Source: an uncultured Alphaproteobacteria bacterium (lineage in GTDB: Bacteria > Pseudomonadota > Alphaproteobacteria > HIMB59). From it: DNA of 64,000 nt. The position numbers and the translations under genes were made by a program. The notes beneath the pieces are model-generated. The model saw only the letters and a list, made by a program, of their open reading frames with translations. It was not told where the DNA came from and searched no databases. Shown one piece after another: positions 16,819-22,236 of this stretch (within the stretch, counting starts at the first letter, position 1; each line of letters opens with the position of its first letter). The stretch is taken from contig CABZPR010000001.1 of the NCBI GenBank assembly GCA_902527545.1, positions 1-64,000 on the forward strand, written 5' to 3'.

Positions 16819-17355
16819 CTAATTAATTGCGCAAAGTGTATGAGCCTCATGTAACTTATTATCTATATTCTCAAAATTCCATTGTTCTTCAGGTATGTCA
16901 AAATACTTTGCGTAAACTTTTTGTATGGTCATCTTCATTAAATTGTCTTCTAACATATCCTCATTCATTTTGATGAATTCTTTTGAAAGTGGAATATTTT
17001 GTGCTACATAAATACCTGCAATCTCACCTAGTCCAAATGGTGATGTAAATGCAACACTACCTAATATCTCTTGGCCACCAAAATTTAAATGAATTTGTTG
17101 ATCTTCAAAAATTTCATTTAAAGGCGATGGGTTATCCTGCATGGTGTAAATGAAGAAAAAAACATTAAACCTGCAACCATTATTCTTATCAAAATTAAAA
17201 TGAATATTATTTCCATGTTGGATTTCACCATTTTTTTTTAAAGTGATAAAATTTTCATCTTGGTCTATTTGCCATGGATCAGCCAAAGTAAAATTTGGTG
17301 TCATCCAAATTGAGAAAATTAAAATGTATTTAAATATCAAATTTAAATAATACAT
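16819..17355 (-). CDS. Secreted protein of unknown function (paralogue A)
   Basis: Exported protein of about 178 residues with an N-terminal hydrophobic signal ending near FTLADP. The ATG at 17355 overlaps the stop of the zinc-ribbon gene (TAATG), so I prefer it to the in-frame TTG at 17364. No known domain. It shares a sparse pattern with the proteins at 18154-18762 and 21263-21790: an early W, an I-x-F strand, a D/K-x-N-x-C turn followed by aromatic residues, and a lone cysteine near the C-terminus that could pair with it. I read the three as divergent members of one periplasmic family. Confidence 0.75.
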   Translation of the reverse strand: MYYLNLIFKYILIFSIWMTPNFTLADPWQIDQDENFITLKKNGEIQHGNNIHFNFDKNNGCRFNVFFFIYTMQDNPSPLNEIFEDQQIHLNFGGQEILGSVAFTSPFGLGEIAGIYVAQNIPLSKEFIKMNEDMLEDNLMKMTIQKVYAKYFDIPEEQWNFENIDNKLHEAHTLCAIN

Positions 17356-17768
17356 TAGTCCCAAAGTATTCCCAGTAAGACTTTAAGATCCTGCTGATGA
17401 CATTTGGGACAACACAAATCTGGGATAGTTTCATTTTCATTATCCTCTGGCATATACTCTCTCGCCTTTTGACATGAACGACAATAAGAATCTGTTTGAA
17501 ATATAAGATCTCCTTGTTGGTTATACAATATAAGGTGACACTTATTTTCTAATGAGTGGCAATTACTACACTGATAAAGAGAGTAGCCTCGTGAATAGTG
17601 GGTATGAATTTGTTTACGGTGTTTTAAGAGTTGTACTGTTTTTTTATCATTACCTCTAAGTGCATGGAGTATGTCGTCAATGTTTCCAAATAAAAAGCCA
17701 ACTCCCATTGTGATCTCTTCAGATTTGTACTCACATTTTTGACATTCAATAAAATAACTATGACCCAT
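17355..17768 (-). CDS. Zinc-ribbon protein with four CxxC pairs
   Basis: About 137 residues. Four CxxC knuckles are spread through it: ECQKCEY, QCSNCHS, YCRSCQK and CCPKCHQ, enough for two zinc ribbons. The frame is open upstream to 17885, but that extension runs straight through a tRNA-like element, so I chose the ATG at 17768. No catalytic motif is seen; a nucleic-acid or protein-binding zinc module is likely. It overlaps the secreted protein downstream (TAATG), so the two share an mRNA. Confidence 0.7.
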   Translation of the reverse strand: MGHSYFIECQKCEYKSEEITMGVGFLFGNIDDILHALRGNDKKTVQLLKHRKQIHTHYSRGYSLYQCSNCHSLENKCHLILYNQQGDLIFQTDSYCRSCQKAREYMPEDNENETIPDLCCPKCHQQDLKVLLGILWD

Positions 17769-17810
17769 AAGAGGTATTATAAGTTTTTTTGAAAACTCCC
17801 AAAATAGTTT

Positions 17811-17900
17811 TGGTGCAGCCGGATCAGGAGTCGAACCTGCATCTTCCCTTCCCGCAAGAAATCTCAGTGTGGGACGCTTTTCCATTTAAGCTAAGGCCGC
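17811..17900 (-). tRNA. Aberrant tRNA-like element ending in encoded CCA
   Basis: On the minus strand, 90 bases fold partly as a tRNA. The acceptor GCGGCC pairs with GGCTGC (one G-T), followed by discriminator A and an encoded CCA. The D arm is textbook: T8, A9, stem GCTT/AAGC, G18G19, A21. The T loop is TTCGACT on stem CAGG/CCTG. Two parts are wrong for a canonical tRNA. The T stem continues past a bulged G with GAT/ATC and leaves no room for a normal junction. The anticodon region is a 7-pair arm (TCCCACA/TGCGGGA, one A-C) with an 11-base loop instead of 5 pairs and 7 bases. No anticodon can be assigned. Either a decayed tRNA gene or an unusual cloverleaf. Confidence 0.5.
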
Positions 17901-17929: not shown

Positions 17930-18157
17930 TTATTTTCCATATTTAGGAACTACCGGGGGCTCGGGCTCCTCTGGCAAAGTACATTGCTCTTTGTTAGCAG
18001 GTAATTCATCAAAAGGGCGTGTTACCCAAATGTGTGAAAAAATAATATCCCCGTTTTCATTTTGAAAGCATTTCTTACCAAAATGAAGTTGACTGTGATT
18101 TTGCTCATTTGCAACATACAAGAATAAAAATGCTGATATAAAATGTAAAAAAGTCAT
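17930..18157 (-). CDS. Small secreted protein, unknown
   Basis: A 75-residue product with a hydrophobic N-terminus (~3-17) that looks like a signal peptide, two cysteines (GKKCFQ and EQCTLP) and a proline-rich tail (PEEPEPPVVPKYGK). Its ATG overlaps the stop of the preceding secreted-protein gene (ATGA), which argues that it is really translated. No family recognised. It ends just upstream of the tRNA-like element. Confidence 0.6.
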   Translation of the reverse strand: MTFLHFISAFLFLYVANEQNHSQLHFGKKCFQNENGDIIFSHIWVTRPFDELPANKEQCTLPEEPEPPVVPKYGK

Positions 18158-18762
18158 GTTTTTATTTTTAATCCTTTCTGAGAATTGTTTAGGCTAGCCG
18201 AAATCGGATCAGGTATTTTTTTGCAATGCCCGAGAGCTCTGTCCATCGCTTCCTCTACTTTTGGCATGGCCCACTGAATTGTAGGCAAGTCTATGAATGT
18301 TCTTAAAGCTACTGGCTCCTCAAAAGGAACATCAGTGACTGTTAAGCGAGAGCGTTTATGAAAAGTATAATATTCTTTAATCGTTTCATGATTGTATGAA
18401 CCCATACCTATTAAAATCATGTGCCCATTCTTGTATGGATATATGTCATGCACCATTCCGGTGGTTGAATGACCATTTTCACTGAGTTCAATTTCTTTAT
18501 CTAATAATTTTGTAAGATCAGGGTGAGCTGATAAGGTAAATAATTCAAAGAATTGAAGTACACGATCACAATTATTTTTGGTCATAACAAAAATAATATT
18601 TTCTGAATCTTCAACATCACCACTACGTTCAATTGCAATAATTTCCTCTTCCAACAATTGAATATTCCAACCATGAAATTTTTCTAAAGTCATCGCTGAA
18701 CTTAAGGAAACGATAAATTGAGAGGCAATTATTAATATTGAGTATTTTCCTCTTTGTACCAC
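18154..18762 (-). CDS. Secreted protein of unknown function (paralogue B)
   Basis: About 200 residues if started at the GTG at 18762, which puts a signal peptide (GKYSILIIASQFIVSLSSA) at the N-terminus. The frame stays open to 18939, but the extra 59 residues are basic, low-complexity and unlike a coding start. No ribosome site decides the matter; an ATG 23 codons later would remove the signal. It shares the W-x-I strand, TKNNC turn and C-terminal cysteine (LGHCKKI) with the proteins at 16819-17355 and 21263-21790. The stop overlaps the ATG of the small secreted protein downstream. Confidence 0.6.
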   Translation of the reverse strand: MVQRGKYSILIIASQFIVSLSSAMTLEKFHGWNIQLLEEEIIAIERSGDVEDSENIIFVMTKNNCDRVLQFFELFTLSAHPDLTKLLDKEIELSENGHSTTGMVHDIYPYKNGHMILIGMGSYNHETIKEYYTFHKRSRLTVTDVPFEEPVALRTFIDLPTIQWAMPKVEEAMDRALGHCKKIPDPISASLNNSQKGLKIKT

Positions 18763-18985
18763 GGCTAATTTACAGGAGGATGGGATTAGCCGCAGCACAG
18801 AAAGGAACCATGAAAAAACCAACTCAATTTTTCCTCTCCCTTTTTTTTGTTTGTCATTTATTAACCTGGTAGGAAATGACTTAGAGAAGGAGTAACTAGA
18901 AAACAGAAAGGAAGAGAGAGGTCTTTGCACTAAAGACAAAGATATTAATTTTTAAAAATAAAGATTGGGAAAAGATTATGAAATT

Positions 18986-20371
18986 TTAGACAGTTATACC
19001 ATTGTTAAGAATATTCCAATTATTCTTAATAGCCCACCCAAAGATAGCCATAAATAGAAAATAACTTAGACTTAGAGACCAAAATAATTTTTTATCAATT
19101 GTGTTATAGCGACCCGTTTGATGATCACGATGGTAATCCCAGTAGCTCCAAATTGTTATAATAGTAGAAAGACCTGTGAACAAATAAGAAATCAAAATCC
19201 AAGCATCTAAAATACTGATTTTGTTGATTTTTGGAAGTCCATCACCAAATGTAAATTGAAATACCACGAGGGTCAGCAAAGAACCCAGTGATACTGCTAG
19301 CTTAGACTCAAGTTCACGGGCCGGTATCCAAAATACACTAAACGATAGATAAACTAAAAAGATGACTGGTAGAATTATTTTCAAAATATAGTAGAAAGAT
19401 TTTCTTGTAAGCTCAAAGTTGAAATGAACCTCTTGTTGCACACCCTGACCATAAATTTTTGTAGGACAACAATCAAAATCATGATGTGTTATCTGCCACT
19501 CGTAAAGATTTTCGTTGCCCCTATCAATAACAAATTCAGGATTATATAATGCAGATGTATTCAGATCAGTGTCTTGGAAAACAAAGCCTGCTGATGTTGC
19601 TATTCTATCGAATGGAAATTTTTGAAATTCCGAAATATTATTTGCCTGGTAATTTATTTTTTGAACCAAATGAAAATTATAAGGTTTATTACTTGTTACT
19701 AATAAACTATGAAACTCAGATCGATTAATAAATGAAGTGATATCTGATGCATCGAAATTAGGATACCATATTTTTTGGAGAATATTTTCTAATTCAGCAG
19801 ACTTTCTAAAAATACATTTTATTTCAGAGTCTTCATTCTCAGCAAACTTGGCTTTATCTAAACCTAATATTAGAGGTAGTTTATGAATTAAATCTTCATT
19901 TCTCCACTTTAGATGTACTTCAAAATCTAAACTAGTTTTACTACTTTGTTGAATAATCTCTATGTCTCTCAAGATAATATCAAATTCGACAATAGGATGT
20001 CCCAAATAAGGAGTTCTCTCTAGACTAATTGTTTTAGTTTTACCATCTGATCCAATTACCTTTAACGAAACATTCCTAGTAGCTAAAAATTTATTTATAT
20101 TATCTTCTTCAATATTGGATATGTCCTCCCCATTAATTTCGATAATCTGATCCCCTGTGGATATAGAGGACTCAAAGGCAGAAGAGCCAAAGCGTATTTT
20201 GTCAATAATTGCGGCGTTTTCATCTAAAACTACACCGACATCATTGTAGGCAAGACGTATATTAGATGTTTCTCTAAAATCTGTTTTTAAAAGTCGCTCA
20301 CAAATTTCTGCACCCCAACTTACACTGGAAAAGAAGATCCAAAATCCTAAAATTATCCCCCTTGAAATCAA
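18986..20371 (-). CDS. Pentameric ligand-gated ion channel with N-terminal PDZ domain
   Basis: Inner-membrane channel subunit of the Cys-loop superfamily. In order: signal peptide (1-21); a PDZ domain (~38-118) with GDQIIEINGEDI at 73-84; a beta-sandwich ligand-binding domain (~122-325) with IWYPNFD (201-207) and the signature FPFD (252-255); then four membrane helices at about 326-347, 355-375, 385-408 and 428-448. Helix 1 is entered through FELTRKSFYYILKIILP, typical of the family. The two Cys-loop cysteines are absent (N245 and T259 stand there), as in other bacterial members, but loop C carries a vicinal pair C300-C301 followed by P, as in nicotinic alpha subunits. Preceded by a putative DNA-binding regulator with one base between them. 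Confidence 0.87.
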   Translation of the reverse strand: MISRGIILGFWIFFSSVSWGAEICERLLKTDFRETSNIRLAYNDVGVVLDENAAIIDKIRFGSSAFESSISTGDQIIEINGEDISNIEEDNINKFLATRNVSLKVIGSDGKTKTISLERTPYLGHPIVEFDIILRDIEIIQQSSKTSLDFEVHLKWRNEDLIHKLPLILGLDKAKFAENEDSEIKCIFRKSAELENILQKIWYPNFDASDITSFINRSEFHSLLVTSNKPYNFHLVQKINYQANNISEFQKFPFDRIATSAGFVFQDTDLNTSALYNPEFVIDRGNENLYEWQITHHDFDCCPTKIYGQGVQQEVHFNFELTRKSFYYILKIILPVIFLVYLSFSVFWIPARELESKLAVSLGSLLTLVVFQFTFGDGLPKINKISILDAWILISYLFTGLSTIITIWSYWDYHRDHQTGRYNTIDKKLFWSLSLSYFLFMAIFGWAIKNNWNILNNGITV

Positions 20372-20372
20372 A

Positions 20373-20837
20373 TTAGAGTGATTTTAACACACTCTTAATT
20401 TTACTCAACTGATCATCTAATTTTTGGATGTCTTGGTAAATTTTTTCTTTTTCATGTGGGACTATTTTTGCTCCTCCCGAACTTTTCTCATCCATTGACT
20501 CACGTACAGCGTCCATTAAATCTCCTAATCTTCCCCCAATCGCTAATATCTCTGATTGTACTTCACTTTCACTAGCAGGTTTTTCAAGTTGAGCCGTTGC
20601 TAGATAGTCTTTTAAAAAATTACTAAAAGGAGTTTTTTGGTAAATTTTATGCATAGCATGTTCCAGACGAATGACAGTTCTAAATTGTATATTCCTCTCA
20701 ATATCGTCAGGATCAGCACATTTGTATATATAAGACTTAGACTTCCCAGTAATATCTTGAATATCTTGATCACTTAAATTTTTAAGAACCTCATTTAGAG
20801 TGTGTTCAATGGTGATAATTTCTTTTGTTTTAGACAT
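20373..20837 (-). CDS. Putative helix-turn-helix regulator upstream of the channel gene
   Basis: A 154-residue cytoplasmic protein. Residues ~22-60 (SDQDIQDITGKSKSYIYKCAD and following) look like a helix-turn-helix of the phage CII-like kind found in alphaproteobacteria. The C-terminal third is a predicted coiled coil (EKEKIYQDIQKLDDQLSKIK) for oligomerisation. It ends one base before the start of the ion-channel gene, so the two are very likely co-transcribed and co-translated. Target unknown; self-regulation of the pair is plausible. Confidence 0.65.
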   Translation of the reverse strand: MSKTKEIITIEHTLNEVLKNLSDQDIQDITGKSKSYIYKCADPDDIERNIQFRTVIRLEHAMHKIYQKTPFSNFLKDYLATAQLEKPASESEVQSEILAIGGRLGDLMDAVRESMDEKSSGGAKIVPHEKEKIYQDIQKLDDQLSKIKSVLKSL

Positions 20838-20942: not shown

Positions 20943-21263
20943 ATGAAGTCTAATTATATTACTCCTACTTTAGGTAGAAGGTTATCCTCTAATAAAAAAA
21001 ATGAGCCACAATCCTTAAGAGATATTGAAGAGTATTTGCGTTGTTTAGCACAAATCAGACAAGAAAATAATATTTCAGTTGAGGATGTAATGCAGCATTT
21101 GAATTATTCTCGTAGCACTCTTGATGCTCTTGAAAATGGTAACCTAGAATTTATTCAGTATCCCTTAAATTACTTTTTTACTAGGCAATATGCCTCTTAC
21201 CTTAAAGTGCCCTTTCCTCAGCAATTTTTAATGAGTCATTTCAAACCAGGAGAAAAAAAGTAA
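20943..21263 (+). CDS. RodZ-type helix-turn-helix protein without membrane part
   Basis: A 106-residue protein whose core (~25-95) matches the N-terminal HTH domain of RodZ: an LRCLAQIRQENNISVEDVMQHLNYSRSTLDALENGN recognition region, then the F-x-R-x-Y-A-x-Y-L motif (FFTRQYASYLKVP). RodZ continues with a membrane helix and a periplasmic domain; this protein ends after FKPGEKK, so it is a stand-alone HTH domain. It overlaps the next secreted-protein gene by one base and is divergent from the channel operon across about 105 bases. Confidence 0.65.
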   Translation: MKSNYITPTLGRRLSSNKKNEPQSLRDIEEYLRCLAQIRQENNISVEDVMQHLNYSRSTLDALENGNLEFIQYPLNYFFTRQYASYLKVPFPQQFLMSHFKPGEKK

Positions 21264-21790
21264 TGAGAGCAATATTATTGTTAATTATCAGTGTTTTTTT
21301 AACCAATTATTCTTTGAAAGCAGAAAGTAGTCCTATGCATCATGAATTTGATAATTGGATACATATGGAGGCTAAAGAGGAAAACTTAGACTTAGTCTTT
21401 AGTTTGGAAAACCAGGATCAAATGATTATTTTTATTGTCGATCCAAACTTAAGTTGCGATGCTCGATTAGTTTACACCAATCGAGAATTTGAGCCAAAAG
21501 ATTTTGACGTCATGAGTGGTGAGGCATTTGATTGGAAGCTCTCAGGTCAATCTTATGAAGGTGAAGATGCAAGCCGATTGAATGCCGATGGATACGTTCG
21601 GTGGGAGTTAATGAGTTTTTATAAACATCACTTCTCCAAACTTGAAGAGCTGTTGTCCAAAAGAGGACAAATTTCATTTTCCATCAATGATCCTCTCAAC
21701 AGGTTTGAAAAACAAGAGATAGAAATGAAAGCTAACGGACTCAGTTCTGCTCTTAACAGCGCTTTGGATACGTGCCAGGGATGGACATGA
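21263..21790 (+). CDS. Secreted protein of unknown function (paralogue C)
   Basis: 175 residues with a clean signal peptide (MRAILLLIISVFLTNYSLKA). The remainder has an early W, an IIFIVDPNLSC turn and a cysteine close to the end (LDTCQGW), matching the sparse pattern of the proteins at 16819-17355 and 18154-18762. No recognised domain. Translationally coupled at both ends: to the RodZ-type gene (one-base overlap) and to the next secreted protein (ATGA overlap). Confidence 0.75.
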   Translation: MRAILLLIISVFLTNYSLKAESSPMHHEFDNWIHMEAKEENLDLVFSLENQDQMIIFIVDPNLSCDARLVYTNREFEPKDFDVMSGEAFDWKLSGQSYEGEDASRLNADGYVRWELMSFYKHHFSKLEELLSKRGQISFSINDPLNRFEKQEIEMKANGLSSALNSALDTCQGWT

Positions 21791-22236
21791 TTAAAAAATT
21801 ATTATTTGTGGTCATGTTCCTAACCTTTTCTTTACAAATTAAAGCAGAAATTAATCAGTCAACGATTTTTGTGCTAGGTAGTTTAGATAAAGAAACAAAG
21901 CAATTATTTAAAGAAACAATTTATGACCAAATACACAATTACGCTCAAACAATTAGTATAGAAACACAGTCGAACATATATGTGTTTCCCTATCAAAATC
22001 AAAATCAATGGCAGGTTGTGAGTTTGCATGTACAAGGAAATGAAAACCATTCATATCTTCTCGATCTCTCTTTAGAGGGTCACCCTCTTCGGTCTTTAGA
22101 TGAAATCCGCCAACTCGTTGGTCTAGATGGTTCTCTGAAATACATCGGTTGGAGCAGCTATGATGAGCTCCCACCAGAAAAGGTTTTTATTGCTTCAAAA
22201 ATTATCGCTCAAGATTATCTGTATTTGTATTTTTAA
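21787..22236 (+). CDS. Secreted protein, unknown
   Basis: About 149 residues beginning MIKKLLFVVMFLTFSLQIKA, a signal peptide. I took the ATG at 21787 because it overlaps the preceding stop (ATGA) and has AGGG about eight bases upstream; a GTG at 21772 and an ATG at 21781 are also in frame. The mature protein is mixed alpha/beta, without cysteines or known motifs. Third gene of the RodZ-type / secreted / secreted operon. Confidence 0.7.
   Translation: MIKKLLFVVMFLTFSLQIKAEINQSTIFVLGSLDKETKQLFKETIYDQIHNYAQTISIETQSNIYVFPYQNQNQWQVVSLHVQGNENHSYLLDLSLEGHPLRSLDEIRQLVGLDGSLKYIGWSSYDELPPEKVFIASKIIAQDYLYLYF

What the first reader, a model, noticed from the sequence alone, without database searches (positions are those of the whole stretch)
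18986..20371. PDZ domain fused to a bacterial pentameric ligand-gated ion channel
The sequence shows, between the signal peptide and the ligand-binding sandwich, a PDZ-like module with GDQIIEINGEDI (73-84). Accessory domains are known in some prokaryotic channels (for example the extra N-terminal domains of DeCLIC), but I do not know of a PDZ-channel fusion. In the periplasm a PDZ could bind C-terminal peptides, making the channel sense protein damage or anchor to a partner.
Basis: partly seen in the sequence, partly recalled or inferred. Interest (0 to 1): 0.85.

Follow-up and report, generated by a model that had tools for sequence, protein, structure and literature searches.

The report
PDZ domain built into bacterial pLGIC
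Marine alphaproteobacteria carry a relative of our neurotransmitter-gated ion channels with a protein-binding PDZ domain built into its outer part, a combination I could not find described and one that could let the channel be controlled by protein tails.

Summary
Window 18986-20371 (-) encodes a 461-aa protein: signal peptide, short Cys-containing helix, PDZ domain (Pfam PF00595, E=9.4e-8, above the curated cut-off), pLGIC ligand-binding region with FPFD loop, and four TM helices (PF02932, 2.8e-9, above cut-off). It is not an assembly accident: 27 genomes of the genus encode PDZ-bearing orthologues (one partial, one broken) at one locus, and the PDZ is under purifying selection. Divergent paralogues, including one from another family of the class, have PDZ-like domains at the same place. 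At the same locus three genomes carry the channel without the PDZ. The papers read describe PBP-I, Cache, MCP-N and jelly-roll additions to pLGICs, not PDZ.

Function is unproven. Leads: most channels end in a PDZ-ligand-like Phi-x-V tail on the same (periplasmic) side; the channel is inherited with a fixed cassette (regulator, secreted proteins); divergent relatives sit beside a PrsW protease. Best model: the PDZ is a peptide-binding regulatory module on a probably cation-selective channel. AlphaFold was uninformative (shallow alignment), so fold and pentamer rest on sequence. New variant of a known kind.

The parts
18986..20371 (-). PDZ-pLGIC gene, 461 aa, TTG start
   Evidence: orthologues
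20312..20371 (-). residues 1-20, signal peptide
   Evidence: sequence: hydrophobic core followed by SWGA
20264..20308 (-). residues 22-36, Cys-helix (CERLLKTDFRETS) preceding the PDZ; probably the alpha-1 helix of the sandwich; C24 nearly invariant in the clade, also in PDZ-less members
20015..20260 (-). residues 38-119, PDZ domain; X-Phi-G-Phi loop D44-V45-G46-V47; GDQIIEING 73-81
19418..20008 (-). residues 122-318, ligand-binding sandwich; C186; KFPFD 251-255
19466..19471 (-). vicinal Cys pair C301-C302 in the loop C region, invariant in the PDZ-type orthologues aligned
19022..19396 (-). residues 326-450, M1-M4; M2 ELESKLAVSLGSLLTLVVF
18989..19018 (-). residues 452-461, C-terminal tail WNILNNGITV-COOH, Phi-x-V end as in PDZ ligands
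20373..20837 (-). 154-aa putative regulator (weak phage CII/CP76 similarity; a divergent homologue passes the Pfam cut-off), 1 nt upstream of the channel
18154..18939 (-). downstream gene, predicted secreted; its homologue is found in the same 28 of 52 genus genomes as the channel
17930..18157 (-). 75-aa small protein of the cassette
17355..17885 (-). 176-aa Cys-rich ORF of the cassette
16819..17364 (-). 181-aa predicted secreted paralogue of the 18154-18939 gene
20943..21263 (+). 106-aa HTH_25 protein, divergently transcribed
21263..21790 (+). 175-aa predicted secreted protein
21772..22236 (+). 154-aa predicted secreted protein

Best explanation
It is a prokaryotic pentameric ligand-gated ion channel of the GLIC superfamily with a PDZ domain inserted between its N-terminal helix and the first strand of the ligand-binding sandwich, so that up to five PDZ domains would sit on the periplasmic part of a (probably homo-)pentamer. 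Most likely the PDZ is a regulatory or tethering domain that binds the C-terminal residues of a periplasmic protein, or the channel's own Phi-x-V tail, and so biases gating of a probably cation-selective pore. Shown by sequence: both domains, their order, four TM helices, conservation across species, purifying selection on the PDZ, gain or loss of the PDZ at a fixed locus, a conserved gene cassette. Inferred: fold and pentamer, periplasmic location, peptide binding, cation selectivity (Glu-Ser-Lys before M2, GLIC-like), and coupling of PDZ occupancy to gating.
For: Both Pfam models pass curated cut-offs. The PDZ piece hits PDZ proteins in the PDB. The channel profile hits GLIC at 2e-17. 26 genomes counting the window carry PDZ-bearing orthologues. 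PDZ omega 0.15-0.49 in close pairs (LBD 0.02-0.05): kept but fast-evolving. NTDs of divergent paralogues match a PDZ profile that includes this genome's own DegP and Prc PDZs (0-1 of 500 shuffles as good for four of six; p about 0.02 for two), while LBD control stretches do not. X-Phi-G-Phi loop kept: D44 and G46 invariant. Tails of 22 orthologues: I/L/V at -2 and V at 0 while -1 and -3 to -7 vary. PDZ-less channels G012, G014, G023 at the same locus show the PDZ is a separable module. Gene 18154-18939 is found in exactly the 28 of 52 genus genomes that have this channel at this locus.
Against: No confident structure. Peptide binding is untested, and a PDZ can serve as a structural or allosteric part. 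Four PDZ-bearing genomes (G004, G005, G036, G046) lack the tail: a TAG lies before it. The last codon GTC is invariant at DNA level while five other invariant Val positions vary their codons, so V at position 0 may reflect a nucleotide constraint. The PDZ sits near the apex and the tail near the membrane, so self-binding needs a reach of several nm.
Confidence: 0.45

Rival explanations
1. The PDZ is only a structural or allosteric spacer like the NTD of DeCLIC: it stabilises the ECD or tunes gating kinetics and has lost peptide binding.
For: PDZ evolves several times faster than the LBD, is degenerate in paralogues, and was lost or is absent at least twice without loss of the cassette. DeCLIC's NTD speeds gating (PMC12664993).
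Against: The carboxylate-loop glycine and the KxRFGS segment are invariant in PDZ-type orthologues; most tails keep a Phi-x-V end.
Confidence: 0.3
2. Clasp model (a special case of the best explanation): the PDZ binds the channel's own Phi-x-V C-terminus (same subunit, neighbour, or another channel) and holds a state that is released when a competing peptide appears.
For: Both ends are periplasmic by topology; 13 distinct tails all end [I/L/V]-x-V, a class II PDZ-ligand pattern; the PDZ-less channels G012 and G014 end differently (NLV, KIF).
Against: Apex-to-membrane distance; four PDZ-bearing genomes have lost the tail; GTC codon constraint; divergent PDZ-like paralogues lack the motif.
Confidence: 0.15
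3. Sequence-only mimicry: residues 38-119 are not a PDZ but another small beta domain.
For: The AlphaFold model with 5 rows is poor and Foldseek finds no PDZ; some orthologues score below Pfam cut-offs on their own.
Against: Pfam above cut-off; PDB hits are PDZ proteins; the strand/helix order of the low-confidence model is what a PDZ would give.
Confidence: 0.05

Closest known systems
GLIC (Gloeobacter proton-gated pLGIC) and other plain prokaryotic pLGICs
   Same: Profile E 2e-17, FPFD loop, pre-M1 Arg, four TM, Glu before M2
   Different: GLIC has no N-terminal extra domain and no vicinal Cys in loop C
DeCLIC (pLGIC with periplasmic NTD; PMC12664993)
   Same: Extra periplasmic N-terminal domain before the ECD
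   Different: DeCLIC NTD is two calcium-binding jelly-roll lobes, about half the receptor mass; here one PDZ of about 80 residues
[quoted passage not shown]
   Same: Domain fused between signal peptide and core channel
   Different: Those domains bind small molecules; none is PDZ. PBP-like fusions were seen in the phylum sample by reading sequence only
HtrA/DegP, Prc/Ctp and RseP PDZ domains
   Same: Closest PDZ type by orthologue profile; DegP PDZ1 of the same genome matches the channel PDZ profile
   Different: Those are attached to proteases; here the output would be an ion pore
nAChR alpha subunits
   Same: Adjacent Cys pair in loop C (C301-C302)
   Different: Bacterial, no Cys-loop disulfide; the similarity of the pair may be convergent

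Membership tests
pLGIC / Pro-loop receptor superfamily | [F/Y]PxD loop | tested here: met
   KFPFD at 251-255, FP and D invariant in the family alignment; motif definition from PMC4795631
pLGIC / Pro-loop receptor superfamily | Pre-M1 Arg and four TM helices with channel-domain match | tested here: met
   R323 invariant; PF02932 above cut-off; four hydrophobic segments
pLGIC / Pro-loop receptor superfamily | Ligand-binding sandwich | tested here: met
   TIGR00860 and GLIC alignments cover it in part; PF02931 not matched by this protein, but matched over cut-off by relative L035
pLGIC / Pro-loop receptor superfamily | Pentamer and ion conduction | not testable with these tools
   needs structure and electrophysiology
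PDZ domain | Sequence profile above curated cut-off | tested here: met
   PF00595 32.8 bits vs 23.2
PDZ domain | X-Phi-G-Phi carboxylate-binding loop | tested here: met
   D44-V45-G46-V47; D44 and G46 invariant in orthologues; assignment of the loop is by alignment, not structure, and position 45 is S or G in several orthologues
PDZ domain | PDZ fold | tested here: inconclusive
   pLDDT 54.8, Foldseek no significant hit
PDZ domain | Binds C-terminal peptides | not testable with these tools
   binding assay needed
DeCLIC-type NTD | Two jelly-roll lobes | tested here: not met
   one domain of about 80 residues matching PDZ; no other accepted Pfam match in the N-terminus
PBP-I / Cache / MCP-N fused pLGIC | Small-molecule sensor domain | tested here: not met
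   no such Pfam match

The most novel reading that the evidence does not exclude
A peptide-gated ion channel: the PDZ clasps the channel's own Phi-x-V tail at rest and is released by exposed C-termini of damaged or secreted periplasmic proteins, so that envelope state is turned into ion flux, with PrsW-type intramembrane proteolysis linked in divergent relatives.
Probability: 0.1. Interest if true: 0.9.

Novelty: new variant of a known kind. Interest (0 to 1): 0.62.

Why it matters
The physiological role of prokaryotic pLGICs is largely unknown. A channel with a well-understood peptide-binding module and natural PDZ-plus and PDZ-minus versions at one locus makes the role of an accessory domain directly testable. 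If PDZ occupancy gates the pore, it would be a protein-sensing member of the neurotransmitter-receptor superfamily and a simple model for allosteric control from outside the ECD.

Tried and rejected
Viral contigs: no relatives. Plasmids: only one 23%-identity match, to Legionella. Rfam and tRNA scans: nothing. Gene-fusion artefact: rejected, since the fusion recurs in 27 genomes and both parts are under purifying selection. Regulator without channel (G023, G032, G044): explained by contig ends, and the channel start is still visible in G023 and G044. PrsW as partner of this channel: its own genome has one PrsW on another contig, without a channel beside it.

Full report
The gene. Window 18986-20371 (-) is an intact 461-aa frame with a TTG start one base after the stop of the upstream gene; most complete orthologues have the same TTG and spacing. 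Domains in order: signal peptide; a short helix CERLLKTDFRETS; a PDZ domain; the pLGIC sandwich; four TM helices; a ten-residue tail.

Test of the two domains. Pfam PDZ 9.4e-8 and Neur_chan_memb 2.8e-9 both pass their cut-offs. The PDZ piece alone finds PDZ proteins in the PDB (best 4.8e-8), and a profile of eight orthologous PDZs is closest to RseP-type and Do-type bacterial PDZs. The channel profile of seven orthologues finds GLIC at 2e-17. AlphaFold did not resolve the fold, because only five nearly identical rows were admissible; this is a lack of evidence, not evidence against.

Conservation. The host is an uncultured marine alphaproteobacterium: four near-identical genes (96-97% protein identity) lie in records titled 'uncultured Alphaproteobacteria bacterium', isolates AG-xxx; 'marine' is inferred from the isolate naming, not tested. 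In the genus, PDZ-bearing orthologues lie in 26 genomes counting the window (G026 is broken), plus a contig-end piece in G044; G012, G014 and G023 have the channel at the same locus without the PDZ, the Cys-helix running straight into the sandwich. The locus is accessory: the downstream gene that accompanies it is present in 5 of 10 near-complete genomes. PDZ omega is 0.15-0.49 in five close pairs, LBD 0.02-0.05, M1-M3 about 0, so the PDZ is kept, but it changes faster.

Older relatives. Divergent paralogues (466, 511, 492, 522 and 585 aa; genera g1 and g2, family f10) have N-terminal domains that score as PDZ against shuffles, while LBD controls do not: firm for four, marginal for L113 and L116. 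The tree puts all in one clade (100/98) with the PDZ-less L111/L112 and L114 nested among PDZ-bearers (several long branches, so placement is tentative). The simplest reading is an old PDZ lost at least twice. In samples of 385 class and 398 phylum genomes, the hits outside this clade whose N-termini I read had plain or PBP-like extensions (by eye). These samples are a fraction of the groups, so absence elsewhere is not shown.

Neighbourhood. The channel lies in a fixed block: divergent HTH_25 protein and two secreted proteins on one side; CII-like regulator, channel, secreted protein, small protein, Cys-rich ORF, second secreted protein on the other. The downstream secreted protein occurs in exactly the 28 genus genomes with this channel at this locus, and the regulator in these plus three cut at contig ends. 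Because the genes are adjacent, this shows joint inheritance of one block, not independent co-occurrence. Most divergent channels with PDZ-like domains, and PDZ-less L114, stand directly next to a PrsW-family protease gene (PF13367, E 1e-25 to 1e-34 in the four tested); the window's channel does not.

Features bearing on mechanism. (a) 22 orthologues have 13 distinct tails, all [I/L/V]-x-V-COOH, with -1 and -3 to -7 variable: a class II PDZ-ligand pattern on the periplasmic side. Cautions: the GTC codon is invariant at DNA level, and four PDZ-bearing genomes have a TAG before the tail. (b) M2 begins E-S-K, with Glu where GLIC has one, so cation selectivity is likely (inference). (c) Four cysteines: C24 and C186, conserved also in PDZ-less and divergent members, may pin the N-terminal helix to the sandwich and so fix the PDZ insertion point; C301-C302 are adjacent in loop C, as in nAChR alpha subunits.

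Mechanism. The PDZ is best read as a peptide-binding regulatory or tethering module; a purely structural role is the main rival. Ligand, ion, and coupling are unknown.

Prior art. [quoted passage not shown] PMC4795631 (2016) left N-terminal parts out of its analysis; PMC12664993 (2025) calls DeCLIC the only pLGIC whose NTD has been partially characterised. No paper found in the held library describes a PDZ-pLGIC; subscription papers and protein sequence databases were not searchable.

Noticed in passing
L089:12012-14263, L113:4564-6899, L114:5389-7371, L117:5130-7359, L118:6035-8163, L122:7448-8628: Divergent pLGICs of this clade sit directly beside a PrsW-family intramembrane protease gene; a literature search for the pair found no paper.
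   Followed up: partly
window 19466-19471: Adjacent cysteines (CCPT) in the loop C region of a bacterial pLGIC, as in nAChR alpha subunits; invariant in the PDZ-type orthologues aligned, absent from PDZ-less and divergent members.
   Followed up: partly
window 18980-18991: DNA string GTCTAAA at the channel's stop is invariant across 21 orthologues although other Val codons vary; CCCAATCTTT about 20 nt further is also conserved. Possible DNA or RNA signal; no Rfam match.
   Followed up: partly
L107-L110 (G005, G046, G004, G036): Four PDZ-bearing channels have a different M4 end and a TAG before the tail; the non-coding remainder still resembles a Phi-x-V end.
   Followed up: partly
L094 (G026): Regulator and channel N-terminus are broken in this genome (pseudogenes or single-cell assembly errors).
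   Followed up: no
window 18154-18939: The first ~80 codons of the downstream ORF do not look like a signal peptide; a later start before SILIIASQFIVSLSSA is likelier.
   Followed up: no
L124:4498-6370 (window genome, another contig): A PrsW gene resembling the one beside the L113 channel follows a 347-aa secreted protein, with no channel beside it.
   Followed up: partly
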